From the NCBI GenBank assembly GCA_031272715.1, contig JAISTH010000083.1, positions 1-64,000 of the forward strand: 64,000 bases of DNA, given 5' to 3'. The DNA comes from Desulfovibrio sp. Lineage in GTDB: Bacteria; Desulfobacterota; Desulfovibrionia; Desulfovibrionales; Desulfovibrionaceae. Both the position numbers and the translations under genes were made by a program. Positions 11,304 through 23,549 of the stretch are shown here, in pieces. A model generated the notes under the pieces. That model was not told where the DNA came from, ran no database searches, and saw only the letters and a list, made by a program, of their open reading frames with translations. Each line of letters starts with the position of its first letter. The first letter of the stretch is position 1.

Positions 11304-11624
11304 CTATTTGGCGTTGGCCAATTGCAATGTGGCGTCTACCGTGCGCTCGAAGGCAGCCAGATCGCCTTTGTGCTGGACAGCTGCGTCAAGCAGATCATTC
11401 AGAATCTCCGGGGCATTGATACTTCTTATCTTGTCTTTGAGGGATTTACTGATTTGAGGGAATCGCACTTCCGCAATGCGCAGGAAACTGTCCTGAAGGC
11501 CTTCGGAATATCCTATATTCCTAGCAATGACATAGCTCATGTTCTTCCAAATCTGTACAGCCAAGGGCTGTTTCTTTTCAGAAGCATTCATATTGTTAGT
11601 ATCTTCAAAATGCATATCTTTCAT
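11304..11624 (-). CDS. Repeat-array module protein, copy 1 (106 aa)
   Basis: This is one of five related modules in a tandem array. The start at 11624 follows GGAGTTCTTCC. The product contains the shared pattern: QPLAVQIWKNMS, then EGLQDSFLRIAEVRFP, KDKIRSINAP, and the C-terminal FERTVDATLQLANAK. I do not recognise the family. The regular helices and KIRSIN / FERTVDATL blocks resemble the C-terminal tails of repetitive Rpn-like (PD-(D/E)XK transposase-associated) proteins, but no nuclease core is present. Probably a remnant. Confidence 0.5.
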   Translation of the reverse strand: MKDMHFEDTNNMNASEKKQPLAVQIWKNMSYVIARNIGYSEGLQDSFLRIAEVRFPQISKSLKDKIRSINAPEILNDLLDAAVQHKGDLAAFERTVDATLQLANAK

Positions 11625-11695
11625 GGAAGAACTCCAATCGATAATGGTTTTGCAGCATCTTGATTCAATACACCTAGCGCTGACCAATATCAGAG

Positions 11696-12463
11696 CTATT
11701 TGGCGTTTGCAAACTGCAATTTGGTATCGACAGTGCGTTCGAAGGCAGCCGAATCACCTTTGTGCTTGAGAGCTACGTCAATCAGGCCATTCAGAACATT
11801 AGGATCATTGATACTGCGTATCGTGTCATTGAGGGATGCGCTGATTGGAGGGAATCGCAGTTCCGCTATGCGCAGGACGCTGCTCTGAAGGCCATCGGCG
11901 TATCCTTCAGAGTGTCCTGCAGAGTATTCTTCAAAAAACTCTATATTCTTGCCAACGATATGGCTCATCTCCTTCCAGAGCTTTACAGCGAGGGGATGTT
12001 TCCTCCCAAGAAAATTCGTAAAGAATTTTCCTACATTTTCAGAATCCACATATCCTCTAGAAAAGTACCATCCGACAAGCGCCTTTGTAGTGTCTTGGTC
12101 CAATACGTCAGACGCTGACCAATCTCCAAATCTTTTGGCGCCAGCCATGTGCAATGTTGCATCTACAGTGCGCTCAAAGGCAACGGCATCGACTTGTTTC
12201 TGGGTTGCGTCAAGCAGGTCATATAGTGCATCAGGCTCATTGATGCTTCGTATCTTTGCGTTAAGGGATGCATTGATTGACTGGAATCGCACCTCAGCTA
12301 TACGCAAAACGCTATTCTGAAGAGCCTTGATTTCTCCCATGGCAAGGCCTTCAGTAATGCCTTCAGCCTTGCCCTTGGCCTTGCCCACCATCTTGCCCAT
12401 GCCGAAGCTCATGGTCTTCCAGAACTCTACGGCTAGGGGATGGTACTTTCGATAAGATTTCAT
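11696..12463 (-). CDS. Repeat-array protein with two fused modules, copies 2 and 3 (255 aa)
   Basis: This ORF preserves two complete modules in frame. The first (1-115) starts MKSYRKYHPLAVEFWKTMSFG, contains an EGITEGLAMGEI glycine-glutamate spacer, and ends FERTVDATLHMAGAK. A linker DWSASDVLDQDTTKALVGW then leads to the second module (LGRKHPLAVKLWKEMS to FERTVDTKLQFANAK). The intact linker probably shows what the degraded spacers elsewhere once encoded. Family and function unknown; no membrane or signal segment. This is the most intact member of the array and may be expressed. Confidence 0.55.
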   Translation of the reverse strand: MKSYRKYHPLAVEFWKTMSFGMGKMVGKAKGKAEGITEGLAMGEIKALQNSVLRIAEVRFQSINASLNAKIRSINEPDALYDLLDATQKQVDAVAFERTVDATLHMAGAKRFGDWSASDVLDQDTTKALVGWYFSRGYVDSENVGKFFTNFLGRKHPLAVKLWKEMSHIVGKNIEFFEEYSAGHSEGYADGLQSSVLRIAELRFPPISASLNDTIRSINDPNVLNGLIDVALKHKGDSAAFERTVDTKLQFANAK

Positions 12464-12572
12464 TAAAATTTTCCACTATATTCAGATTTTATATATTTCA
12501 AAAAGAGTGTAAGCCGACATGTACCTTTGCAACATCTTGATGTCATACCACTGGCATTGGCCAATCTCAAAA

Positions 12573-12905
12573 TCATTTGGCGCCAGCCATGTGCAATGTT
12601 GCATCCACAGTACGCTCAAAGTCAACAGCATAGAATTGTTTCTGGGTTGCGTCAATCAGATCATATAGGGCATCAGGCTCATTGATGCATTGTATCTTTT
12701 TGTTGATGGATGCACTGATTGATGGAAAGTACATCTGCACAATGTACAAAATAATGTTTTTGAGAGTCATGATCTCTCCCGCAGCAATGCCTTCAGTCTT
12801 GCCCTCAGCAATGCCCTCAGCCCTGCCTTCAATCATGCCCATGTCGAAGCTCGTCTCTTCCCAGAGCTGTATGGCTTTTGGATTTGTCTTTCTTGAAATC
12901 TTCAT
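12573..12905 (-). CDS. Repeat-array module protein, copy 4 (110 aa)
   Basis: The product begins MKISRKTNPKAIQLWEETSF, parallel to the start of copy 3. It has a longer spacer of EGRAEGIAEGKTEGIAAGE repeats and ends DFERTVDATLHMAGAK. The upstream DNA (AAAATTTTTATG) matches the upstream DNA of copy 3, so the whole unit including its leader was duplicated. The middle block has diverged (ILYIVQMYFPSISASINKKI). Function unknown. Confidence 0.45.
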   Translation of the reverse strand: MKISRKTNPKAIQLWEETSFDMGMIEGRAEGIAEGKTEGIAAGEIMTLKNIILYIVQMYFPSISASINKKIQCINEPDALYDLIDATQKQFYAVDFERTVDATLHMAGAK

Positions 12906-13015
12906 AAAAATTTTCGGATAACTTCAGAATTTACACATTTTCTGAAAGAGTTTCAGCCGACAAGCGCCATTGCAGCATCTTGCTCCAATACGTCTGGCGC
13001 TGGCCAATCTTCGAA

Positions 13016-13261
13016 CTATTTGTCGTCAGCCATCTGCAATGTGGCATCCAAAGTGCGCTCGAAGGCCGCCAGATCGCCTTGTTGCTCGGTGACTGCGTCA
13101 ACCAGGCCATACAGAACTTCAAGCACGTTGATGCTGCGTAACTTGTCATTGAGGGATGGGTTGATTGCAGGGAATCGCACCTCCGCAATGCGCAGTATGC
13201 TGTCTTGGAGACCTTCAGCAATGTCCTCAGAACTCGTGTTCTGCCAGTGCTGTACGGCCAA
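13016..13261 (-). CDS. Repeat-array module protein, copy 5 (81 aa, partial)
   Basis: This is the outermost copy. It starts inside the module (MAVQHWQNTSSEDIAEGLQD) and keeps SILRIAEVRFPAINPSLNDK, LRSINVLEVLYGLVDA and FERTLDATLQMADDK. Sequence upstream in another frame still shows the IIPLAVQHW block, so a frameshift has removed the original N-terminus. Probably not functional. Confidence 0.4.
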   Translation of the reverse strand: MAVQHWQNTSSEDIAEGLQDSILRIAEVRFPAINPSLNDKLRSINVLEVLYGLVDAVTEQQGDLAAFERTLDATLQMADDK

Positions 13262-13354
13262 GGGATGATGTGTCTTTCCCGAAAGCCGCGCACAGGGAAC
13301 ATGCCCCGGAGGTCGGTCAGGGACGCAAGTCCCGGCCTTGCACGCCTAAAACGA

Positions 13355-13453
13355 ACTGTGTGGATACTGCGACTGTGTGGATACTGGCGACTGTGTGGAT
13401 ACTGGCGACTGTGTGGATACTGGCGACTGTGTGGATACTGGCGACTGTGTGGC
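13355..13453 (+). repeat. 18-bp tandem minisatellite
   Basis: The unit ACTGTGTGGATACTGGCG repeats: a first copy lacking one base (13355-13371), four exact copies (13372-13443), then a partial copy to 13453. The length is a multiple of three, but no convincing gene uses it. There are no spacers, so it is not a CRISPR array. It lies at the edge of the five-copy protein-module array and is likely variable in copy number. Confidence 0.9.
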
Positions 13454-14035
13454 TGAACACACGTTTCTCTGGAAGTGGTCTTCCTGCGAGGAAGCTCTAC
13501 GCCTGAACGCCGGGACGCACGGTATCACAAGGCATTTGGCCATGTCAACCCCCCACTGGAAAGAAAAAATCCCCCCACCATTGAACCTGGAGAAACGGGG
13601 AGAACGACGGCAGCGAGGGCCGCCCTGCAGGGACGTTGAGCGTCCAGGGTCTTTTGCGGGAGGGCGGAGCGCGCTGGCAACGAGGAGCGGCCGCCACCGG
13701 CGGCTTTCCACCGCCGTGCACCAGAGGATCCGACGATGTCAGGAATTCGGGCGCTTCCGGGATCGCCGCAAGACCGGCCGGCCTCCGTCAGGAAGTCCCC
13801 GTCGCCGGATTCGTGCCCGTCGCCCTTCGGGCGCGACCAGCCGAAGCGCCCCGGAAACGCCGGACACACGGCATCCGGGGTGCCCGCGATCGCCCTTTCG
13901 TCACCTCGCGGCGGACGTCCGGACGATCGCGGGACGCTGTGCTCTCTCTACTCCATCTCTTCGCCGGCATGGCGACGATGTCCCCATGCCGACGCCCCTC
14001 GCGCCTCCATGCGCCCCCCTGCAACCCTGCGCCGC
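13454..14035. other. Intergenic region, 582 bp
   Basis: This GC-rich stretch lies between the minisatellite and the end of the sulfur operon. No frame has a plausible start, ribosome site or family match. I see no clear terminator for the sulfur operon here. Confidence 0.4.
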
Positions 14036-15709
14036 CTAGCTGAGCTCCCGCAAGGCCCGGGCCAGCAGTTCCACCTCCTCGTGGGTGTTGTAGAAGGCCA
14101 GGGAGGGACGCACGGTCCCCTCGAGCCCGAATCGCCGCAGGATCGGCTGCGCGCAGTGGTGCCCGGCCCGCACGGCGATGCCGTGCCGGTCGAGATGCTT
14201 CGCCGTCGCCTCGATGCCGACGCCGTCCATGACGAGGGATATCACGCTGGCCCGCTGCGCGGGATTCCCTACGAGATGCAGACCGGGGACGGTCCGCAGC
14301 TCCTCGAGGGCGTGGACCAGCAGTTCGTGTTCGTAGGCGGCGATGTTGTGCATGCCGATTTCCGAGACGTAGTCCAGGGCCGCGGCGAGACCCACGGCGT
14401 CCGCTATGTTGCCGGTGCCGGCCTCGAATTTCGTCGGGGCTTCCCGGTACTGCGTCCGCTCGAAGGTCACGTCCGCGATCATGTTGCCTCCGCCCTGCCA
14501 GGGGCGGGCGGCCTCGAGAAGCTCCTTGCGGCCGTAGAGCGCCCCGATGCCCGTGGGGCCGTATATCTTGTGCCCCGAGAAGACGAGGAAATCCGCATCC
14601 ATGGCCGTGACGTTCACCGGCATGTGGGACACGGACTGGGCGCCGTCGACGCAGACGGGAACCCCGCGGGAGTGGGCGATGGAGATCAGTTCCTCGACGG
14701 GGGCGACGGTACCCAGCGCGTTTGACACGTGGGTGGCGGACACGAATCTCGTCCTGCGGTTGAAGAGCCTGGCGTAGTCGGCAAGGAGGATCTGTCCGGT
14801 GTCGTCCACGGGGGCGACCCGCAGGACGGCCCCGGTCTCCTGGGCCACCAACTGCCAGGGGACGATGTTCGCGTGGTGTTCGAGCTGCGTCAGTATGATC
14901 TCGTCCCCCGGCCGAAGCAGGGGGCGGACGCAGGCGTACGCCACGAGGTTCAGGGCCTCCGTCGTCCCCCGCACCCAGACGATGTCCTCCGGGGACGGGA
15001 CGCCGAGGAAGGCGGCGACGGTCGCCCTGGCCGCCTCGTAGGCCTCGGTGGAGACGGCCGCCAGATGGTGGGCGCCCCTGTGGACGTTGGAGTTCTCGTG
15101 GGCGTAGTAGTGGGCGAGGCGCCGGATGACCTGCCGGGGACGCTGGGTGGTGGCCGCGTTGTCCATCCAGACCAGGGGGCGGCCGTTGACGGTCTCGGAG
15201 AGGATGGGGAAGTCCTCCCGGATGGCCGCGAGGGATCTGCCGCCGACGCTTCCGGTCGCCCCTCCCGGCCTTGGCGAGGCCGGGGAGGGGATGGCGGCGG
15301 GGGGCGCCCCCTGCATCGTCACGACGGGGCCGTATCTGGGCGCTTCCCGGGACGTCCTCTCCCCGGACCGCCAAATTTCCCTCCCGGAAACGGCGGGCGC
15401 GGACGGGTCGTGCATGAAGGACAGGAGTCCCTCGATTTCGGCCGGATCGAGCACGTGGCCGGGCCGGGAGCCGTCGGGGATTCCGGGGACGTCTCCATGG
15501 GCCGGAACCTGGGGCGCGACTTCGGGAACCACGGGGGACGACGGGAACGCGGAGGGCGATCCCCCTTCCCCTGTCGGGGCGGGGCCGGGCCCTGCGCCGG
15601 CCGCGGCGCATTCCGGGACCCATGCGGCCAGCAGGCGTCGCAGCTCCCCTTCGTCCGGCAGGCCGTAGGCCTTGGGATCGAGGTGCGGGACGTCAGCGGC
15701 TGTAGTCAT
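14036..15709 (-). CDS. Family 2A encapsulin cargo cysteine desulfurase (SufS-like)
   Basis: This 557-aa PLP enzyme removes sulfur from cysteine to form a protein persulfide. From about residue 160 it is a standard group II desulfurase: DNAATTQRPRQVI, EHHANIVPW, the PLP lysine in FSGHKIYGPTGIGALYG, EAGTGNIAD, and the catalytic cysteine in RAGHHCAQPILRRFG. The first 158 residues are unusual: a short helix, then a Pro/Ala/Gly/Ser-rich disordered stretch with conserved-looking islands (DPAEIEGLLSFMHDP, REIWR). Such an extension is the encapsulation region of family 2A encapsulin cargo desulfurases. Its start overlaps the encapsulin gene by 17 bp, so coupled production is likely. It is the last gene of the operon. 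Confidence 0.93.
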   Translation of the reverse strand: MTTAADVPHLDPKAYGLPDEGELRRLLAAWVPECAAAGAGPGPAPTGEGGSPSAFPSSPVVPEVAPQVPAHGDVPGIPDGSRPGHVLDPAEIEGLLSFMHDPSAPAVSGREIWRSGERTSREAPRYGPVVTMQGAPPAAIPSPASPRPGGATGSVGGRSLAAIREDFPILSETVNGRPLVWMDNAATTQRPRQVIRRLAHYYAHENSNVHRGAHHLAAVSTEAYEAARATVAAFLGVPSPEDIVWVRGTTEALNLVAYACVRPLLRPGDEIILTQLEHHANIVPWQLVAQETGAVLRVAPVDDTGQILLADYARLFNRRTRFVSATHVSNALGTVAPVEELISIAHSRGVPVCVDGAQSVSHMPVNVTAMDADFLVFSGHKIYGPTGIGALYGRKELLEAARPWQGGGNMIADVTFERTQYREAPTKFEAGTGNIADAVGLAAALDYVSEIGMHNIAAYEHELLVHALEELRTVPGLHLVGNPAQRASVISLVMDGVGIEATAKHLDRHGIAVRAGHHCAQPILRRFGLEGTVRPSLAFYNTHEEVELLARALRELS

Positions 15710-16637
15710 AGTAGTCCCCTATCTCGACGTCTTCCAGCACCGCGACGGCGTCGTCCGCGAGGATCGCGACGGAGCAGTAGAGGGAGAGCAGGTAGGACGC
15801 CACGCCCTTCTCGTCCACGCCCCGCAGGCGCACGCTCAGGCCCCGGGACTGTTCGCCGGGCATCCCGGTCTGGTAGAGGCCCACGACGCCCCGTTTGTTC
15901 TCGCCGGTGCGCACGAGCAGGATGTTCGTCTTGCCTTTCGCGCTCACGGGGTTGCGCAGGCCGTCCACCAGCAGCTTGTCCGTGGGGATCAGGGGGACGC
16001 CCCGCCACTCGATGAAGGTCCCGCCGTGGATGCGGGCCGTCGAGGGCGGCACCCCGCGGCGCGTGCACTCCCGCTCGAAGGCCGCGATGGCCCTGGGATG
16101 GGCGAGGAAGAAGGAGGGTTCCTTCCAGACCTTGGCCAGCAGTTCGTCCATGTCGTCCGGCATGGGGGCGCCGAACCGCGGCTTCACGCGCTGGGTCTCG
16201 ATGGCGTTCGCAAGCAGGCCGTAGTCGGAGCTGTTGATGATCTGGCTCTCCTGGCGCTCCCGCAGGCTCTCTATGGCCAGGGCGAGCTGCTCGGCGGTCT
16301 GGTCGTAGGGCGAGCTGTAGACGTCGGAGACCCTCGTGTCCACGTTGATGATCGTGGAAATGGCGTTGAGTTCGTACTCCTTGGGCTTGGTCTCGTAGGG
16401 CGTGAAGCCGGACGGGATCGTCGCGTGGGGGGCCTGCTGGCTGCAGAGGATGTCCAGGGGCGTCTCCCCTTCCACGACCCTGTTGACCCGGTAGATGCCG
16501 GACTCGAGTCCCTTGAATTCCAGCAACGCCGTCAGCCATCGGGGCGTCAGGGCGCCGTACTGGGGCCGCGTCTTGTTGACGTCCGCGAGCTGGTATGCGG
16601 CATACCGGCTCAGCGTGGCACCGTTGTTCTGTGGCAT
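15693..16637 (-). CDS. Family 2A encapsulin shell protein (SrpI-like)
   Basis: This 314-aa protein is the HK97-fold shell subunit of a family 2A encapsulin nanocompartment. Length and sequence fit SrpI-type shells: an N-terminal arm (SRYAAYQLADVNKTRPQYGA), TPRWLTALLEFKGLESGIYR, NAISTIINVDTRVSDVYSSP, an ESQIINSSDYGLL loop, HPRAIAAFERECTRRGVPP, and a C-terminal strand region ending VLEDVEIGDYYDY. The neighbouring desulfurase with a disordered N-terminus is its known cargo type. In characterised systems the compartment takes up cargo-derived elemental sulfur and is linked to sulfur nutrition. The start follows GGGAGAAAG; the preceding MoeB-like gene ends 15 bp upstream. Confidence 0.93.
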   Translation of the reverse strand: MPQNNGATLSRYAAYQLADVNKTRPQYGALTPRWLTALLEFKGLESGIYRVNRVVEGETPLDILCSQQAPHATIPSGFTPYETKPKEYELNAISTIINVDTRVSDVYSSPYDQTAEQLALAIESLRERQESQIINSSDYGLLANAIETQRVKPRFGAPMPDDMDELLAKVWKEPSFFLAHPRAIAAFERECTRRGVPPSTARIHGGTFIEWRGVPLIPTDKLLVDGLRNPVSAKGKTNILLVRTGENKRGVVGLYQTGMPGEQSRGLSVRLRGVDEKGVASYLLSLYCSVAILADDAVAVLEDVEIGDYYDYSR

Positions 16638-16652
16638 GGTCTTTCTCCCGGG

Positions 16653-17816
16653 TTAATATTGTTGTATCGACTTGTCGACTTCCCGCGCCCAGGCGTTCAC
16701 GCCCCCTTGAAGATTCAGCATTTTCCCCTCGTATCCGCACTCCTCCATGATCTGGATCGCGTAGGCGCTCCTCTGTCCTATCTTGCAGATGAACACCGCG
16801 TCCTTGGACGGATCGAGTTCGTCGCTGCGCCTCGCCAATTGGCCGATCGGGATGGAGATGGCGCCCGGGAAGGCGTAGAGGGCCTGTTCGTGGGGCTCCC
16901 GGATGTCGATGATCTGCAGGTCGTCCCCTTTGTCGATGCGCGCCTTGAGTTCCGCGGGGGTGATGTGCTCCACCGGGTACTCTTCCTTGGGCTTGACGCC
17001 GCAGAACTCCTCGTAGTCGATGAGTTCCGTGATGGTGGGATGGGATCCGCACAGGGGGCACTCGGGGTTCTTGTCGATGCGTATCTCCACGAAGCGCATG
17101 CGCCAGCCGTCCATGATCAGGAGACGCCCGGTGAGGGTCTCCCCTCCTCCCACGACGAGCTTGATCGCCTCGCAGGCCTGTATGCAGCCGATGATGCCCG
17201 GGAGCACGCCCATGACGCCCCCCTCCCCGCAGGACGGGACGAGGCCCGGAGGGGGCGGTTCGGGGAAGAGGCATCGCAGGCAGGGCCCGTTCTTCGCGTC
17301 GAAGACGCTCGCCTGGCCCTCGAACTGGAACACGGATCCGTAGACGACGGGCAGGCCCAGAAGGGCGCAGGCGTCGTTGAGAAGGTATCGCGTCGGGAAG
17401 TTGTCCGTGCCGTCCACGACGACGTCGTAGCCCTTGAGGATGTCCATGGCGTTCTGGCTGGTCAGCCGCTCGTTGTGCATGACGACGAGGGTCCGGGAGT
17501 TCAGGCGGTGGATGGCGTCCCGGGCGGAGGCGACCTTCGGCCGGTCGATGTCGTCCTCGGTGTGGATGACCTGTCGCTGCAGGTTCGACTCCTCCACGAG
17601 GTCGTAGTCCACGAGCCCGATGGTCCCGACGCCCGCGGCGGCGAGATAGAGGCCCACGGGGGCGCCGAGGCCTCCGGTTCCCACGATGAGGACGCGGGAG
17701 GCCTTGATGCGCTTCTGCCCCTCGACGCCGATCTCCGGGAGGAGCAGGTGGCGGCTGTAGCGGGAGAAGTCCCAGGTGGAGAGGCCGTTCAGGCGGTCGT
17801 CGGCGATGCGGCTCAT
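16653..17816 (-). CDS. MoeB/ThiF-type E1 adenylyltransferase-rhodanese fusion
   Basis: The protein has 387 aa. The N-terminal ThiF/MoeB domain (1-265) has the ATP-binding GTGGLGAPVGLYLAAAGVG, then DYDLVEESNLQRQ, DGTDNFPTRYLLND, and zinc-binding CxxC pairs (CLRC and CPLC). The C-terminal rhodanese domain (about 280-387) has the active-site loop FICKIGQRSAYA. Such proteins adenylate the C-terminal Gly-Gly of a MoaD/ThiS-like carrier and load it with sulfur from the rhodanese cysteine as a thiocarboxylate. The ATG overlaps the stop of the carrier gene (17813-17816), so carrier and E1 are made together. In this operon it probably serves Cys/Met synthesis, not molybdopterin. Confidence 0.9.
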   Translation of the reverse strand: MSRIADDRLNGLSTWDFSRYSRHLLLPEIGVEGQKRIKASRVLIVGTGGLGAPVGLYLAAAGVGTIGLVDYDLVEESNLQRQVIHTEDDIDRPKVASARDAIHRLNSRTLVVMHNERLTSQNAMDILKGYDVVVDGTDNFPTRYLLNDACALLGLPVVYGSVFQFEGQASVFDAKNGPCLRCLFPEPPPPGLVPSCGEGGVMGVLPGIIGCIQACEAIKLVVGGGETLTGRLLIMDGWRMRFVEIRIDKNPECPLCGSHPTITELIDYEEFCGVKPKEEYPVEHITPAELKARIDKGDDLQIIDIREPHEQALYAFPGAISIPIGQLARRSDELDPSKDAVFICKIGQRSAYAIQIMEECGYEGKMLNLQGGVNAWAREVDKSIQQY

Positions 17817-18094
17817 CGGGCGCCTCCCGCGATGGCGGGGACGAGCATGAGGCGCGCGCCGCTCTCCAGCGGCGTCTCCAGCCCCTTGAGGGACTTGATG
17901 TTCGCATCGCCCAGATAGACGTTCAGGAACGAGCGCAGCTTGCCCTCCTCGTCGTAGAGGTGCCGCCTGATGTCCGGGTAGGACGCCGCGAAGGCGGCCA
18001 GGGCCTCGCCGACGTCGCGACCCTCCACGGACACCTCCGAGCGGCCTTCGGTGAAGGTCCGCAGCGCGGTGGGGATGCGGATCGATGTCGCCAT
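17813..18094 (-). CDS. MoaD/ThiS-family sulfur carrier (CysO/HcyS-like), C-terminus GG-AR
   Basis: This 93-aa ubiquitin-fold carrier begins MATSIRIPTALRTFTEG and contains RSFLNVYLGDANIKSLKGLETPLESGA, as in the CysO branch. It ends LVPAIAGGAR, so two residues follow the Gly-Gly. The carrier must lose Ala-Arg before it can be adenylated and thiocarboxylated, and the JAMM peptidase encoded 17 bp upstream is the obvious processing enzyme. By analogy with CysO (Mycobacterium) and HcyS (Wolinella), the thiocarboxylate donates sulfur to cysteine or homocysteine synthesis. AAGGAG precedes the start, and the stop overlaps the E1 gene. Confidence 0.9.
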   Translation of the reverse strand: MATSIRIPTALRTFTEGRSEVSVEGRDVGEALAAFAASYPDIRRHLYDEEGKLRSFLNVYLGDANIKSLKGLETPLESGARLMLVPAIAGGAR

Positions 18095-18111
18095 GGTTGG
18101 TTCTCCTTCTG

Positions 18112-18528
18112 TTACAATATGCTTTCGGGGATGAAATCGCTACGGTCCGCTGCCAGTTCCCAGCTCGTGAGGTCCGTCGCCCGGCCGTCTTCGACGGCGA
18201 CGATGACGTAGGAGTAGCACGGGAGGGCCTGCGCCAGGTCGAAGTCCGACGGCCGCGCGGGATGGTCCGGATGGGAGTGGTAGAATCCCGTGACGTCGAG
18301 GCCCTGGGCGGCGGCGGCCCGTTCCGCCCGGAGGTAGTCGTCGGGGTCGATTTTGAATCGGCGGCGCATGTCCCCCTCGTCCCAGGCGTTCTCGGCGGGC
18401 AGGGCCGTCTCCGCGGTCCTGCCCCGGGCGTCGAGGCGCCCCAGCAGGAAGCCGCAGCACTCCTCGGGATACGCCGTCTCCCCGGCGGCGCGGACGGCGG
18501 CGATCACGTCCTCGTTCAGGGCGATCAT
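18112..18528 (-). CDS. JAMM/M67 metallopeptidase (Mec+/HcyD-like)
   Basis: This 138-aa zinc peptidase has the full JAMM signature: the upstream Glu in YPEECCGFLLG (about residue 22) and the metal site FYHSHPDHPARPSDFD (H-x-H-x7-S-x-x-D). Mec+ proteins release cysteine from CysO-Cys, and relatives trim extra residues after the carrier's Gly-Gly. Here the carrier ends GG-AR, so trimming, Cys release, or both fit. Its start codon overlaps the stop of the upstream synthase gene (ATGA, 18525-18528). The carrier gene starts 17 bp downstream. Confidence 0.92.
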   Translation of the reverse strand: MIALNEDVIAAVRAAGETAYPEECCGFLLGRLDARGRTAETALPAENAWDEGDMRRRFKIDPDDYLRAERAAAAQGLDVTGFYHSHPDHPARPSDFDLAQALPCYSYVIVAVEDGRATDLTSWELAADRSDFIPESIL

Positions 18529-19481
18529 GGCGCGGTCCTCCAGAAGTCGTCGGAGAGGTGCCGTTCGCCGCGGTCGCAGAGTATGGTCACGATCCGCGCG
18601 CCTTGGGGGAGGCTTCGGGCGAGGGTCAGCGCCCCGTGGACGTTGGCGCCGGAGCTGATCCCCACGAGGATGCCCTCCTCCCGGGCGAGTCTGCGGACCA
18701 TGGCGTAGGCGTCCTCGGTGGACACGGGGACGACGGCGTCGGCGAGGGTCTCGTCGTAGATGCCGGGCTTGATGGTGGAGGCCATGTGCTTCGTCCCCTC
18801 GATGCCGTGGAAGGGGGAGTCCGGCTGGACCGCGACGATGCCGATGCCGGGGTTCCGTTCCCTGAGGAATCGGGAGGTGCCCATGAAGGTGCCGGAGGTG
18901 CCCATGCCGGCGATGAAGTGGGTGAGGGGGCCGGCCTGGGCCAGTATCTCGGGCCCTGTGGTCTCGTAGTGGGCCCGGGGGTTCGCGGGGTTGTTGTACT
19001 GGTCCGGGTGGAAGTGGCGTTCGGGATCCGCCTCGGCGGCGGCCTTGGCCGCGAGGTAGGCCCCGTCCGAGCCCTCCAGCGGGTCCGTGGGGACGATCGC
19101 GGCTCCGTAGGCGAGGATCATGTCCCGGCGCTCCCTGCCGGCGTTGGCGGGCATGTAGAGGACGACGGCCCGGCCGAGGGCCGCGCCCATCATGGCGTAG
19201 GCGATGCCGGTGTTGCCGCTGGTGGCGTCGACGATGGTCCGGCCGGGAGGGAGCAGCCCCCTTGCGATGCCGTCCAGCAGCATGGCGCGGGCGGCGCGGT
19301 CCTTGACCGAGCCGCTGGGATTCAGGAACTCGGCCTTTGCAAGCAGGGTCCTGCCCGGCACGTCCCGGGATATCCTGTGGAGGGTCAGCAGGGGGGTGTT
19401 CCCGACGGCGTCCAGGATCTCCGGGATCGGGGCGTCGGGGGATGCGGGCTTGAACAGGGAGCGGACGGGTGCTTCGCTCAT
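18525..19481 (-). CDS. Cysteine synthase-family PLP enzyme (CysM/CysK-like)
   Basis: This 318-aa fold-type II PLP enzyme has the PLP lysine in NPSGSVKDRAARAMLLD (about residue 63), the substrate loop DATSGNTGIAYA, the phosphate-binding GMGTSGTFMG, and GISSGANVHGAL near the end. It makes cysteine from O-acetylserine or O-phosphoserine and a sulfur donor. Next to a CysO-like carrier and a Mec+-type peptidase, the donor is probably the carrier thiocarboxylate, as for mycobacterial CysM. This is inferred from neighbours, and free sulfide use is not excluded. The start at 19481 follows GGGGAGG. The upstream PLP gene ends 219 bp away, the widest gap in the operon, and that gap holds an imperfect 18-bp repeat. 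Confidence 0.9.
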   Translation of the reverse strand: MSEAPVRSLFKPASPDAPIPEILDAVGNTPLLTLHRISRDVPGRTLLAKAEFLNPSGSVKDRAARAMLLDGIARGLLPPGRTIVDATSGNTGIAYAMMGAALGRAVVLYMPANAGRERRDMILAYGAAIVPTDPLEGSDGAYLAAKAAAEADPERHFHPDQYNNPANPRAHYETTGPEILAQAGPLTHFIAGMGTSGTFMGTSRFLRERNPGIGIVAVQPDSPFHGIEGTKHMASTIKPGIYDETLADAVVPVSTEDAYAMVRRLAREEGILVGISSGANVHGALTLARSLPQGARIVTILCDRGERHLSDDFWRTAP

Positions 19482-19490
19482 GCCGCACCT

Positions 19491-19540
19491 CCCCTGCATG
19501 CCGCGCCTTCCCTGCGTGCCGCGCCTTTCCTGCGTGCAAT
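19491..19540 (-). repeat. Imperfect 18-bp tandem repeat upstream of the synthase gene
   Basis: Three imperfect copies of CCCTGCATGCCGCGCCTT (with G/A and C/T changes) lie immediately upstream of the synthase ribosome site. They may be simple slippage DNA in the wide intergenic gap. No protein-binding role can be claimed. Confidence 0.5.
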
Positions 19541-19700
19541 GGTCGCGGGATCCGGGCCGAGGCCCGCCCTTTTCGCGCCGGCGCCCGCAGGGGCCCGGCG
19601 AAGGAGTCTTGGCGGCGTTCCGGCGCCGCCGGCGTCTGCACCCATCGTCCCTCCCTTTTCTGAAGTCGCGGCCCTTTTCCGAAGTCGCGGTTCGCGGCCC

Positions 19701-20837
19701 TCAGTCCGCGAGCGCATCCTCGATGTCCGCCAGGATGTCCCCGGGCGCCTCGAGCCCCACGGAAAGCCGCACCAGTTCGTCCCCTATCCCCCGGGCCGCC
19801 CGGGCCTCCCGCGGCATGGAGGCGTGGGACATGGTGGCCGGATGGCACAGGATGGACTCCACCCCGCCGAGGCTGACGGACACCAGCGGCAGCCTCGCCC
19901 GGTCCAGCAATCGCTCCGCGAGGGCGGGCGTCTCGAGGTCGAAGGACAGGACCGCCCCGGGACCCGACGCCTGGCGCTCGTGCACGTCCCGTCCCGGATG
20001 GTCCGGGAGGCCTGGATGGTAGACGCGCCGCACCCTGGGATGGGCGGCGAGGCGCCGGGCGATCTCGGCGGCCCCCGCCTGGCAGGCGTCCATGCGCACT
20101 GCGAGGGTCTTCAGGCCCCGCAGGAGGAGCCAGCAGTCCTGGACGCCGAGGACGGCCCCGAAGGCGTTCTGGATGAACCGCATCCGCGCCGTGATCTCCT
20201 CGTCCCGGACGACGGCGATCCCGGCCAGCACGTCGCTGTGGCCTCCCAGGAACTTCGTGGCGCTGTGGACGACCACGTCGAAGCCGAAGTCCAGGGGCCG
20301 CTGCAGGTAGGGGGTGGCGAAGGTGTTGTCCGCGATGGACAGCAGCCCCCGGCTGCGGGCGATGGACGCCATGAGGGGGAGGTCCGTGATCCCGAGGTGG
20401 GGATTTGAGGGGGTCTCGACGAAAATGGCCCGGGTGGCGGGCCGGATGGCGGCCTGGACGGCGTCCGGGGAGGATGTGTCCACGAAGGTGGTGGCGAGGC
20501 CCCAGCGGGAGAAGAGGGTGGTGAGCACCCGGAAGGAGCCGCCGTAGAGGTCCCGGCCGGCCACCACGTGGTCCCCGGGGGAGAGGAGGAGCAGCGTCGA
20601 GGAGACGGCGGCCATGCCTGAGGCGAAGGCGAGGGCGGCGGCGCCGTTCTCGAGATCCGCCATGGCGGCCTCCAGGGCGTCCCGGGTGGGGTTGCCGCTG
20701 CGGGTGTAGTCGTGGCGGCCCTGGGAGAGGATGCGACGCTGGTCGAAGGTCGAGGCGAGGTAGATCGGGACGCTGGAGGCTCCGGTGTAGGGATCCCTGT
20801 CCTGTCCGGCGTGGACGATGCGGCTTCTGATGTCCAT
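19701..20837 (-). CDS. Cys/Met-metabolism PLP enzyme (cystathionine gamma-synthase/lyase family), second copy
   Basis: This 378-aa protein has the PLP lysine in VVVHSATKFLGGHSDVLAG (about residue 190), YTRSGNPTRDALEAAMADLE, and DLYGGSFRVL. It belongs to the MetB/MetC/CGL family. The C-terminal ESILCHPATMSHASMP is typical of synthases and lyases acting on cystathionine. Whether it makes or cleaves cystathionine cannot be decided by eye. The ATG at 20837 is preferred because CAAGGACC precedes it; a GTG at 20858 overlapping the upstream stop is the alternative (adding 7 residues). Confidence 0.85.
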   Translation of the reverse strand: MDIRSRIVHAGQDRDPYTGASSVPIYLASTFDQRRILSQGRHDYTRSGNPTRDALEAAMADLENGAAALAFASGMAAVSSTLLLLSPGDHVVAGRDLYGGSFRVLTTLFSRWGLATTFVDTSSPDAVQAAIRPATRAIFVETPSNPHLGITDLPLMASIARSRGLLSIADNTFATPYLQRPLDFGFDVVVHSATKFLGGHSDVLAGIAVVRDEEITARMRFIQNAFGAVLGVQDCWLLLRGLKTLAVRMDACQAGAAEIARRLAAHPRVRRVYHPGLPDHPGRDVHERQASGPGAVLSFDLETPALAERLLDRARLPLVSVSLGGVESILCHPATMSHASMPREARAARGIGDELVRLSVGLEAPGDILADIEDALAD

Positions 20838-20854
20838 GGAGGTCCTTGGGGATG

Positions 20855-21994
20855 TCACGCGCGCAGCGCCGCGTCGAGGTCGTCCACGAGGTCCGCGGGA
20901 TCCTCGAGGCCGATGGAGAGCCGCACGAGTCGGTCGGTCAGGCCGATGCGCTCGCGGATGGCCGGGTCGATGTCCGCATGGGTCTGGACGAGGGGGTAGG
21001 TGACGAGGGATTCCGTGGCGCCGAGGCTCTCGGCGAAGAGGAAGACGCGCACCGAGGCGAGGAGCCGCTCCACGGCCCCGGGGGATTCCAGCTCGAAGGA
21101 GATCACGCCGCCGAAGACGCCCGACTGGCGCTTCAGGGCCTCGTGGCCGGGGTCGGAGGGGAGTCCCGGATAGCGCAGGTTGGAGACCCTGGGGTGGCCC
21201 TCCAGGAACCGGGCGACGGCGAGGGCGTTGGCCTCGTGCCGCGCGAGGCGCAGGGGCAGGGTCTTGAGGCTGCGAAGCAGCAGCCAGGACTCGAAGGGGC
21301 CGAGGATGGCCCCGGCGGCGTTCTGTATGTAGGCGATGCGGTCCGCGAGTTCCCGGGTCCGGGAGACGACGGCCCCCGCGATGAGGTCGTTGTGGCCGCC
21401 GAGGTACTTCGTCGCGCTGTAGAGGGAGATGTCCGCCCCGAAGTCCAGCGGGCGCAGGGCGGCCGCCGTCAGGAAGGTGTTGTCGACGACCAGGAGCGCC
21501 TCCCGTTCCCGGGCGAGAGCGGCGAGTCCGGCCAGGTCCGCCACCTTGAGCAGGGGGTTCGTGGGGATCTCCACGAAGAGTCCCCGGGCCTGCGGGGCGG
21601 CGAGGCCCTCGGCGACGGCGCCTGCGTCCGTGGTGTCCACGTACCGGAAATCCAGCCCCATGGTCCTGCCGAAGCGTTCGAAGAGCCGGAAGGTGCCGCC
21701 GTACATGTCTTCCGTGACGACGATGGCGTCCCCGGGACGGAAGAGCCGCATGACGGCGTCCACGGCCGCGAGGCCCGACCCGAAGGCCGCCGCCCCGGCC
21801 GCCCCTTCCAGGCGCGCGAGGGTCTGCTCGAGAGCCTGGCGGGTCGGGTTGCCGGTGCGGGAGTAGTCGAAGCCCGTGCTTTGTCCGAGGCCCGGGTGCT
21901 GGAACGCCGCGGAGGGGCAGATGTGGGGGGATATGGCGCCGGTGGCCGGATCCCTGCGCGCCCCTGCCTGGGCAAGTATGGTGTCTCGTCGCAT
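20855..21994 (-). CDS. Cys/Met-metabolism PLP enzyme (cystathionine gamma-synthase/lyase family), first copy
   Basis: This 379-aa enzyme of the MetB/MetC/CGL family has FDYSRTGNPTRQALEQ, the PLP lysine in LYSATKYLGGHNDLIAG, and ESLVTYPLVQTHADI. It is about 45% alike by eye to the next gene, and the two may split synthase and lyase roles of transsulfuration. The start ATG at 21994 gives the family's usual N-terminus (MRRDTILAQAG), but its ribosome site is poor; a GTG at 22048 would add 18 residues. It lies between metY and the second copy, all in the same direction. Confidence 0.83.
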   Translation of the reverse strand: MRRDTILAQAGARRDPATGAISPHICPSAAFQHPGLGQSTGFDYSRTGNPTRQALEQTLARLEGAAGAAAFGSGLAAVDAVMRLFRPGDAIVVTEDMYGGTFRLFERFGRTMGLDFRYVDTTDAGAVAEGLAAPQARGLFVEIPTNPLLKVADLAGLAALAREREALLVVDNTFLTAAALRPLDFGADISLYSATKYLGGHNDLIAGAVVSRTRELADRIAYIQNAAGAILGPFESWLLLRSLKTLPLRLARHEANALAVARFLEGHPRVSNLRYPGLPSDPGHEALKRQSGVFGGVISFELESPGAVERLLASVRVFLFAESLGATESLVTYPLVQTHADIDPAIRERIGLTDRLVRLSIGLEDPADLVDDLDAALRA

Positions 21995-22090
21995 GCGCCC
22001 GTCCGGGAGGGGAGAGGTTTCATGCCATGGCCGGGGCCGGGCCGGCACGCCGGGGCCCGGCGATGCGCGGACCCCGGCCGTGCGGCGGGC

Positions 22091-23383
22091 CTAGGTCTTC
22101 GCGAAGGCCTGCTCTATGTCGTCGATGAGATCCTTCACGTTCTCGGTGCCGATGGAGAAGCGCACCGTCTCGGGGAAGATCCCCTGCTCCGCCAGTTCCT
22201 CCGGGGAGAGCTGGGAATGTGTGGTGCTGGCCGGGTGGATCACCAGGGACTTCACGTCGGCGACGTTCGCCAGCAGGGAGAAGATCTCCATGCCGTCCAC
22301 GAAGCGCCGGGCCGCCTCGAACCCGCCCTTGACCTCGAAGGTGAAGATGGAGCCGGCGCCGTCGGGGAAGTACTTTTTGTAGAGCTCGTGGCTGGGCTCC
22401 TCGGGCAGGCAGGGGTGATGGACCCTGGCCACCTTGGGGTGCCCCTTCAGGTGCTCCACGATCTTCAGGGCGTTGGAGACGTGCCGTTCCACCCGCAGGG
22501 AGAGGGTCTCCACCCCCTGGAGCAGCAGGAAGGCGTTGAAGGGGGAGATGCAGGCCCCCATGTCCCTGAGCAGGATCGCCCGTATCTTGACGACGAAGGC
22601 GGCCGGCCCCACGGCCTCGGTGAAGGAGATGCCGTGGTAGCTGGGGTTGGGGCCGCAGACGGACTCGAACTTCCCGCTGGCCTTCCAGTCGAACTTCCCG
22701 CCGTCCACGATGATCCCTCCCAGGGACGTGCCGTGGCCGCCGATGAACTTCGTGGCGGAGTGCACCACGATGTCGGCGCCGTGGTCGAGGGTGCGCAGGA
22801 GGTTCGGGGGGGTGAAGGTGGCGTCCACCACGAGGGGGATTTTGTTGGCGTGGGCGAGGTCCGCCAGCGCCTCGATGTCCACGACGTTGGAGTGGGGGTT
22901 GCCCATGGTCTCGATGAGGATGGCCTTGGTGTTGGGGCGGATGGCCTTGGCGAAGCCGTCCTTCTCGTAGGGGTCCACGAAGGTGGTGTCGATGCCGTAG
23001 AGGGGCAGGGTGTGTTCCAGCAGGTTGTAGGTGCCCCCGTAGATGGTCTTTTCGGAGACGATGTGGTCGCCCTTCTGGGCCAGCGTCATGAAGGTGTAGG
23101 TCAGGGCGGCGGCCCCGGAGGCCACGGCCAGCGCCGCCACGCCCCCTTCGAGGGAGGCCATGCGGCGTTCGAGGACGTCCTGGGTGGAGTTGGTGAGGCG
23201 GCCGTAGATGTTGCCGGGGTCCCGCAGTCCGAAGCGGGCCGCGGCGTGGTCGCAGTTGTGGAAGACGTACGAGGTGGTCTGGTAGATGGGCACGGCCCGG
23301 GCGTCGCTGGCGGGGTCGGGGGTTTCCTGGCCCACGTGGATCTGCCTGGTCTCGAAGGCCCATTTCGAAGTGTCTACGGACAT
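22091..23383 (-). CDS. metY: O-acetylhomoserine sulfhydrylase
   Basis: This 430-aa protein is typical of MetY in length and sequence. It begins KWAFETRQIHVGQETPDPAS, followed by PIYQTTSYVFHNCDHAAARF and YGRLTNSTQDVLERRMASLEGG. The PLP lysine lies in VVHSATKFIGGHGTSLGG, and the C-terminus reads VIHPASTTHSQLS. It makes homocysteine from O-acetylhomoserine and sulfide or a protein thiocarboxylate. In Wolinella, MetY works with a MoaD-like HcyS carrier and a JAMM peptidase, the same partners encoded downstream here. The start follows AGGAGGGACGAC. It is the first gene of the operon, behind a good promoter. Confidence 0.95.
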   Translation of the reverse strand: MSVDTSKWAFETRQIHVGQETPDPASDARAVPIYQTTSYVFHNCDHAAARFGLRDPGNIYGRLTNSTQDVLERRMASLEGGVAALAVASGAAALTYTFMTLAQKGDHIVSEKTIYGGTYNLLEHTLPLYGIDTTFVDPYEKDGFAKAIRPNTKAILIETMGNPHSNVVDIEALADLAHANKIPLVVDATFTPPNLLRTLDHGADIVVHSATKFIGGHGTSLGGIIVDGGKFDWKASGKFESVCGPNPSYHGISFTEAVGPAAFVVKIRAILLRDMGACISPFNAFLLLQGVETLSLRVERHVSNALKIVEHLKGHPKVARVHHPCLPEEPSHELYKKYFPDGAGSIFTFEVKGGFEAARRFVDGMEIFSLLANVADVKSLVIHPASTTHSQLSPEELAEQGIFPETVRFSIGTENVKDLIDDIEQAFAKT

Positions 23384-23520
23384 GTCGTCCCTCCTGGTCG
23401 TTGGGCGCCCCCCTTTGCGGACGGGACGCATGCGCACGAGCGCGCGTGTTTCGTCGTCGCCGCCCTCCAGGATGGAGTCGCGGTGTCTCCCTAACAAAGA
23501 CGACTAAGCCGATGGGATTT

Positions 23521-23549
23521 GTGATAATAAAAGCCGCGGACGCTGTCAA
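23521..23549 (-). promoter_or_regulatory. Sigma-70 promoter of the sulfur/encapsulin operon
   Basis: On the minus strand TTGACA (23544-23549) and TATCAC (23521-23526) are 17 bp apart. They lie about 140 bp upstream of the metY start in an unusually AT-rich patch. The leader between promoter and start (roughly 23384-23514) shows no riboswitch I recognise. Confidence 0.65.

What the first reader, a model, noticed from the sequence alone, without database searches (positions are those of the whole stretch)
14036..23383. Encapsulin nanocompartment embedded in a protein-thiocarboxylate Cys/Met operon
Nine minus-strand genes run in one direction from a good promoter, several with 4-bp overlaps. They encode MetY, two CGS-family PLP enzymes, a CysM-like synthase, a Mec+-type JAMM peptidase, a MoaD/ThiS-like carrier, a MoeB-rhodanese fusion, a family 2A encapsulin and its cargo desulfurase. 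Family 2A encapsulins with desulfurase cargo, and CysO/HcyS-type pathways, are each known. Their fusion in one co-transcribed unit suggests that sulfur stored by the compartment is handed through the rhodanese to the carrier and then to cysteine and homocysteine.
Basis: partly seen in the sequence, partly recalled or inferred. Interest (0 to 1): 0.85.

Follow-up and report, generated by a model that had tools for sequence, protein, structure and literature searches.

The report
Sulfur-storing shell with built-in cysteine pathway
A bacterial protein shell thought to store sulfur travels with a complete protein-carrier pathway for making cysteine, and the same gene block recurs in bacteria of several phyla in termite guts and on a plasmid of another bacterium, which suggests how stored sulfur could be put back to use.

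Summary
The nine genes are there, at the stated coordinates. Six belong to a recurring cassette: cysM, JAMM peptidase, CysO-like carrier, MoeB-rhodanese, family 2A encapsulin shell, cargo desulfurase. All four pathway genes accompany the shell in 32 of 37 related loci (shell identity at least 70%, 3.2 kb or more upstream) and in 1 of 23 more distant ones. Of the 32, 25 are termite-gut MAG loci of five phyla by record title and 7 come from unnamed relatives of the window genome; the one distant case is a Campylobacterota plasmid. A serine acetyltransferase often follows. New detail: 38 of 38 carriers have 1-69 residues after the GG, so each probably needs trimming, most likely by the JAMM peptidase. 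Most likely function: the shell banks sulfane or elemental sulfur, and the carrier line turns it back into cysteine without free sulfide. Flux direction and hand-off are inferred. My text searches found no paper joining encapsulins to a sulfur-carrier protein. New variant of a known kind.

The parts
14036..15709 (-). cargo cysteine desulfurase (CyD), 557 aa, with a ~160-aa low-complexity N-terminal extension holding a GLPDEGELRRLLA motif
   Evidence: PF00266 476 bits; NF041166 family 2A cargo 744 bits (cut-off 800) over residues 160-556; RAGHHCAQP and SGHKIYGP present
15693..16637 (-). family 2A encapsulin shell (SrpI-like), 314 aa
   Evidence: NF041162 466 bits over cut-off 380; PDB 8t6r and 6x8m (SrpI) are the best sequence matches
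16653..17816 (-). MoeB/ThiF adenylyltransferase fused to a rhodanese domain, loop CKIGQRS
   Evidence: PF00899 269 bits, PF00581 54 bits; Uba4 and MoeB in PDB
17813..18094 (-). CysO-like MoaD/ThiS-fold sulfur carrier, 93 aa, ends ...VPAIAGG-AR
   Evidence: PF02597; best PDB match 3dwg_C, chain C of an entry whose chain A is named cysteine synthase B; tail count
18112..18528 (-). JAMM metallopeptidase (Mec-type), motif HSHPDHPARPSDFD
   Evidence: PF14464 88 bits; PDB 2kcq; motif in 36 of 36 JAMM proteins over 80 bits
18525..19499 (-). CysM-like PLP cysteine synthase
   Evidence: PF00291 243 bits; TIGR01138 342 bits, cut-off 394
19701..20858 (-). Cys/Met-metabolism PLP enzyme 2 (nearest model cystathionine beta-lyase, below cut-off); not part of the conserved cassette
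   Evidence: rare near the shell elsewhere
20855..22048 (-). Cys/Met-metabolism PLP enzyme 1 (nearest model cystathionine gamma-lyase, below cut-off); not part of the conserved cassette
22091..23383 (-). MetY, O-acetylhomoserine sulfhydrylase; not part of the conserved cassette
   Evidence: TIGR01326 605 bits over cut-off 495; relatives in 19 of 21 same-genus genomes searched, window included, without the cassette in the three opened
23516..23549 (-). possible promoter region upstream of metY (TTGACA at about 23549, weak -10)
   Evidence: by eye; not found by the consensus scan

Best explanation
A mobile sulfur-banking cassette with a deposit arm and a withdrawal arm. Deposit: the desulfurase, taken into the 2A shell by its N-terminal extension, converts cysteine to alanine and leaves sulfane or elemental sulfur inside. 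Withdrawal: the sulfane sulfur is picked up on the rhodanese cysteine of the MoeB-rhodanese protein. The JAMM peptidase first trims the carrier tail to expose GG. The MoeB domain then adenylates the carrier and it is converted to a thiocarboxylate. CysM couples that sulfur to an activated serine (probably O-acetylserine, as a serine acetyltransferase often ends the cassette). The JAMM peptidase finally cleaves carrier-Cys to free cysteine and carrier. The route bypasses free sulfide and works beside the ordinary cysteine synthase. Supported by homology and synteny: the parts and their association. Inferred: sulfur inside this shell, transfer from shell to rhodanese, flux direction, the double role of the peptidase.
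For: All four pathway genes beside the shell in 32 of 37 related loci against 1 of 23 distant ones. Protein distances correlate in all 15 gene pairs, r 0.59-0.75, 0 of 500 permutations each (shared ancestry alone gives some correlation). In the window's family the strong JAMM matches (139 bits or more) are in 8 of 149 genomes, and all 8 are among the 11 shell-bearing genomes. In two genomes where the shell stands without the block (G095, G107) the four genes lie on another contig. Carrier best PDB match is 3dwg_C. Rhodanese loop in 40 of 41 (the miss is an IS-cut piece) and JAMM motif in 36 of 36. A tail after GG in 38 of 38 carriers. Serine acetyltransferase match 17-1260 bp after the cargo in 17 of 42 related loci. 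Each of 29 cassette genomes tested has another cysteine synthase over cut-off, so the cassette CysM is extra. The CysO pathway steps, and that its sulfur source remained unknown, are in PMC3227635 (passages); encapsulated desulfurases are called involved in sulfur storage in PMC12407261 (passages).
Against: No expression or biochemical data. The desulfurase consumes cysteine and the line makes it, so the two arms must be separated in time or place, and nothing here shows how. Five related loci have fewer than four pathway genes beside the shell although upstream sequence is held (L036, L107, L111, L112, L116), so linkage is not obligatory. Three Oscillospiraceae relatives and L120 have shell and cargo without the block in the stretches held. 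Shell-bearing G056, G150 and G194 are not among the JAMM matches (whether they were drawn is not shown). The window organism has dsrA and so probably makes sulfide, which makes a need to bank sulfur less obvious. The two published targeting motifs are not matched literally by the cargo.
Confidence: 0.55

Rival explanations
1. Charging line: the carrier pathway makes cysteine from outside sulfane sources (thiosulfate, polysulfide) and feeds it to the encapsulated desulfurase, so sulfur flows into the shell for storage or detoxification.
For: The same gene set fits. Uptake genes lie near some cassettes: cysteine and sulfate transport genes on the Aliarcobacter plasmid, SsuA-like and MetN-like ABC genes beside L019. 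Mycobacterial MoeB-rhodaneses accept thiosulfate (PMC3227635, passages).
Against: Each of 29 genomes tested has another cysteine synthase, so a separate sulfide-free line is not needed merely to make cysteine for storage. ABC-type genes cluster in only 9 of 47 loci compared.
Confidence: 0.22
2. Co-regulation without hand-off: two sulfur-limitation modules share an operon, but the carrier gets its sulfur elsewhere and the shell's product is used by Fe-S assembly or as sulfide.
For: Shell and block are on different contigs in G095 and G107 and the shell stands without the block in three Oscillospiraceae loci. S. elongatus shell and cargo rise under sulfur starvation (PMC8049743, passages).
Against: Conserved order and close spacing across phyla and correlated gene distances; strong JAMM matches only in shell-bearing genomes of the window's family.
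Confidence: 0.2
3. The carrier is a ubiquitin-like modifier of shell or cargo and the JAMM peptidase removes it.
For: NCBIfam nearest models are SAMP1 (55.8 bits, cut-off 60) and desampylase (73.6 bits, cut-off 130).
Against: Neither model reaches its cut-off; a CysM-type synthase lies next to the JAMM gene in the 32 complete blocks, and the carrier's best PDB match is solved with a cysteine synthase.
Confidence: 0.03

Closest known systems
Family 2A encapsulin with cysteine desulfurase cargo (SrpI/CyD, Synechococcus elongatus)
   Same: Shell over the family 2A cut-off, SufS-type cargo with a low-complexity N-terminal extension, gene order shell then cargo, frequent serine acetyltransferase.
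   Different: Around S. elongatus SrpI lie cysK, epsC and a free rhodanese; serine acetyltransferases and rhodaneses are the enriched partners in print. Here the rhodanese is fused to MoeB, and carrier, JAMM and CysM are added. By simple patterns the related cargo proteins keep GLPxxxxL in 29 of 36 and the YYFL-type motif in 0 of 36, against 5 and 8 of 18 in distant ones.
CysO-CysM-Mec cysteine pathway with MoeZR (mycobacteria)
   Same: All four functions present; carrier nearest to 3dwg_C; the same chemistry is predicted.
   Different: Carriers have 1-69 residues after GG in 38 of 38, while the matched chains 3dwg_C and 4n6e_B end at GG. The four genes sit in one block with an encapsulin.
Protein-thiocarboxylate methionine pathway (HcyS/HcyD/HcyF/MetY, Wolinella succinogenes)
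   Same: Carrier with residue after GG plus a JAMM peptidase and an E1-like enzyme; MetY lies nearby in the window (details of HcyS recalled; the paper was seen only as a reference).
   Different: MetY was not found with the other cassettes; the conserved acceptor enzyme is CysM.

Membership tests
Family 2A encapsulin | SrpI-type HK97 shell sequence without a cNMP-binding domain | tested here: met
   NF041162 466 bits over cut-off 380; 2B model 369 bits, under its cut-off of 400; no cNMP domain reported; 314 aa
Family 2A encapsulin | desulfurase cargo with N-terminal targeting extension | tested here: inconclusive
   Cargo gene overlaps the shell gene by 17 bp and has ~160 aa before the SufS domain with a GLPDEGELRRLLA motif, but the cargo model is 744 bits against a cut-off of 800 and the published motifs LARLANEFFS and AASPYYFLDG are not matched literally
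Family 2A encapsulin | assembles into a shell, loads cargo, stores sulfur | not testable with these tools
   needs protein work
CysO/CysM/Mec protein-thiocarboxylate cysteine pathway | ubiquitin-fold carrier with C-terminal GG | tested here: met
   GG present but followed by AR, so only after trimming; 38 of 38 carriers have GG plus tail
CysO/CysM/Mec protein-thiocarboxylate cysteine pathway | E1-like MoeB with rhodanese domain, active loop intact | tested here: met
   CKIGQRS and SCGEGG in the window protein
CysO/CysM/Mec protein-thiocarboxylate cysteine pathway | JAMM zinc peptidase active site | tested here: met
   E.CG and HSHPDHPARPSDFD
CysO/CysM/Mec protein-thiocarboxylate cysteine pathway | CysM that takes sulfur from the carrier; O-phosphoserine preference | tested here: inconclusive
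   PALP/CysM family, below the TIGR01138 cut-off; the best PDB matches are other cysteine synthase B chains, the 3dwi/3dki/3dwg ones come lower. Acceptor not determined; an O-acetylserine route is suggested by nearby serine acetyltransferases
HcyS-type methionine pathway | MetY linked with carrier, E1 and JAMM | tested here: not met
   Linked in the window; MetY not found in the 42 related loci

The most novel reading that the evidence does not exclude
The cassette is a self-contained, horizontally spread sulfur bank in which the MoeB-rhodanese protein draws sulfane sulfur straight from the encapsulin and a JAMM-unmasked carrier delivers it to cysteine: a dedicated, sulfide-free withdrawal route for a protein organelle, kept in several phyla of the termite gut.
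Probability: 0.3. Interest if true: 0.85.

Novelty: new variant of a known kind. Interest (0 to 1): 0.64.

Why it matters
[quoted passage not shown] A recurring cassette that joins the two makes both questions testable with one set of purified proteins. It also shows one shell-plus-pathway unit shared across phyla in one kind of habitat, with two cross-phylum groupings in the tree that point to transfer.

Tried and rejected
Homocysteine delivery as a conserved function: rejected, since MetY and the CGS enzymes do not travel with the cassette. A riboswitch or conserved leader before metY: the only Rfam match is a microRNA model far below its gathering score, and the 230-base leaders of 13 related metY genes show no shared block in the alignment. 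An extra gene in the 0.9-1.3 kb gap between MoeB-rhodanese and shell in eight loci: no convincing ORF in the six looked at. Loss of the ordinary cysteine route as the reason for the cassette: rejected, since 29 of 29 genomes tested have a cysteine synthase over cut-off; 32 of 33 have a serine acetyltransferase match at E 0.001 or better, though only 5 over the cysE cut-off and one (G595) only weakly. Misbinned contigs as the cause of the cross-phylum pattern: tetranucleotide profiles of three cassette contigs are closest to contigs of their own genomes, but binning itself uses composition, so this is weak. Structure prediction and fold searches were not used.

Counts and choices. The 70% identity line was set after seeing the data; the genome-contig scan used patterns from the window's own shell and so favours close kin; loci are related, so the Fisher value is descriptive only. 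Five related loci (L022, L032, L041, L109, L117) were left out of the 37 because under 3.2 kb of upstream sequence is held. Neighbourhoods were opened for 8 of 32 plasmid records and for 1 of the 13 other Actinomycetota genomes with a match (most of those look 2B-type). The window is not in the counts; it is in the 38, 36 and 41 and the 36. Catalytic patterns of the desulfurase were both found in 32 of 37 related cargo frames; the other five (L020, L029, L040, L117, L118) lack one or both, some of them in cut or split frames.
Full report
OBSERVATION. The window is contig C87 of a draft genome of 2.99 Mb in 101 contigs, 80% complete. All nine genes exist as open frames in one direction, with 4-bp overlaps at CGS1/CGS2, CysM/JAMM and carrier/MoeB-rhodanese, a 17-bp overlap of shell and cargo, and a 201-bp gap between CGS2 and CysM. 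The promoter before metY is not found by the consensus scan, and no RNA element was recognised.

CONSERVATION. A scan of the genome collection with the window's shell gave 32 loci at 62-77% identity. Their accessions fall in JAIRJQ-JAITXW, deposited with a study of 48 termite-gut metagenomes (PMC11257099, passages). Record titles name Treponema/Spirochaetaceae, Deltaproteobacteria, Clostridiales Family XIII, Oscillospiraceae, Synergistaceae, Acidobacteriota and Propionibacteriaceae. In all, 65 non-window loci were compared. Of the 42 with a shell at 70% identity or more, 32 have all four pathway genes, 5 have too little upstream sequence, and 5 have fewer (L036 has no CysM match; L107 and L112 keep only MoeB-rhodanese; L111 none; L116 carrier and MoeB-rhodanese). 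Of the 23 below 70%, one has all four: the mobilizable plasmid pACIB of Aliarcobacter cibarius (65%), where insertion elements now interrupt the block. L125, an Acidobacteriota-phylum shell at 60%, has JAMM and a CysM fragment beside it. In two of the exceptions, G107 and G095, the four-gene block sits on another contig.

SPREAD. In the shell tree the window and its relatives form a clade of 45 rows (SH-aLRT 99), with Aliarcobacter and L120, a shell from the Family XIII genome's phylum, next (quick method, midpoint root). A tree of the six proteins joined (34 rows, 1621 columns) mostly groups loci by host lineage, but the Acidobacteriota locus groups with the four Family XIII loci (100/100), and one locus of the window's family (L110) groups with the three spirochaete loci (99/98), apart from the other five of its family. 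The finer nesting is not settled: starred branches do not exclude Family XIII or the spirochaetes as single sets. These placements indicate transfer between phyla, or misbinning, which composition does not favour. The listing shows 15 same-genus genomes without the shell.

PARTS AND MECHANISM. The carrier's best solved relative is 3dwg_C, whose entry also holds a cysteine synthase B; by recall this is mycobacterial CysO with CysM. The rhodanese loop is kept in 40 of 41 and the JAMM motif in 36 of 36. Unlike 3dwg_C, whose matched chain ends at GG, every carrier examined has extra residues after GG (38 of 38), variable in length and sequence. A thiocarboxylate forms on the last glycine, so the tail must come off; the JAMM peptidase of the cassette is the obvious candidate, which would give it two jobs. 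Cargo targeting: the published motifs of 2A cargo are LARLANEFFS and AASPYYFLDG (PMC8049743, passages). By simple patterns the related cargo proteins instead have GLPxxxxL in 29 of 36 and YxPxV in 21 of 36, with 0 of 36 for YYFL; in distant ones the numbers are 5, 0 and 8 of 18.

CONTEXT. The window genome has dsrA over cut-off; of 36 shell-bearing genomes tested 4 do (G000, G056, G095, G107), while 28 have some match. Three of these four are exceptions in which the block is not beside the shell, a small-sample curiosity. Each of 29 genomes tested has an ordinary cysteine synthase over cut-off. A serine acetyltransferase follows the cargo in 17 related loci, though not in the window. L019 lies in a long same-direction run with SsuA-like, MetN-like, extra cysteine-synthase-family, serine acetyltransferase and a Cys_Met_Meta_PP gene.

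JUDGEMENT. Supported by sequence: the cassette, its recurrence, its concentration in one clade of shells plus the Aliarcobacter plasmid and, in part, L125, and the masked carrier. Inferred from homology: the CysO-type cysteine synthesis. Inferred from linkage: that the shell's sulfur feeds it. The argument for withdrawal is that a sulfide-free line kept next to a sulfane-producing compartment, in cells that already have an ordinary cysteine synthase, is most simply explained as a dedicated user of sulfane sulfur; the charging reading is not excluded. Enriched neighbours of 2A shells in print are serine acetyltransferases and rhodaneses (PMC8346489, passages). Text searches for encapsulin with JAMM, termite, CysO or thiocarboxylate (20 of 39 papers listed), sulfur carrier (none) and MoeB (one) gave no paper whose listing looked relevant; only open-licence papers are held and supplements could not be opened. 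That the A. baumannii shell stores elemental sulfur is recalled from a 2024 paper that I did not see; its title phrase only counts as a match in the search listing.

Noticed in passing
L118:3246-5763: Just upstream of this cassette lie a small sulfite-reductase-like protein (NIR_SIR domains), a second ThiS, a second MoeB and a second, different JAMM: a second thiocarboxylate cluster. Weak JAMM and sulfite-reductase-like hits also share contigs in G078, G084, G119 and G131.
   Followed up: partly
L129:9343-16643: A 2B-type shell with desulfurase has MoeB and a JAMM gene starting about 2.7 kb downstream of the cargo.
   Followed up: no
L051 (NZ_CP043858.1 56682-81611): On a mobilizable Aliarcobacter cibarius plasmid the cassette is interrupted by IS110 and IS5 elements, and is flanked by cysteine and sulfate uptake genes, cysE and cysK.
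   Followed up: partly
window 13346-13456: Short tandem repeat downstream of the cargo gene, unit about 18 bp, seen by eye.
   Followed up: no
window 11304-13261: Several related short ORFs in tandem that look, by eye, like pieces or copies of one family; not identified.
   Followed up: no
G056, G095, G107: The three other genomes with dsrA over cut-off are all ones in which the shell is separated from, or lacks, the carrier block.
   Followed up: partly
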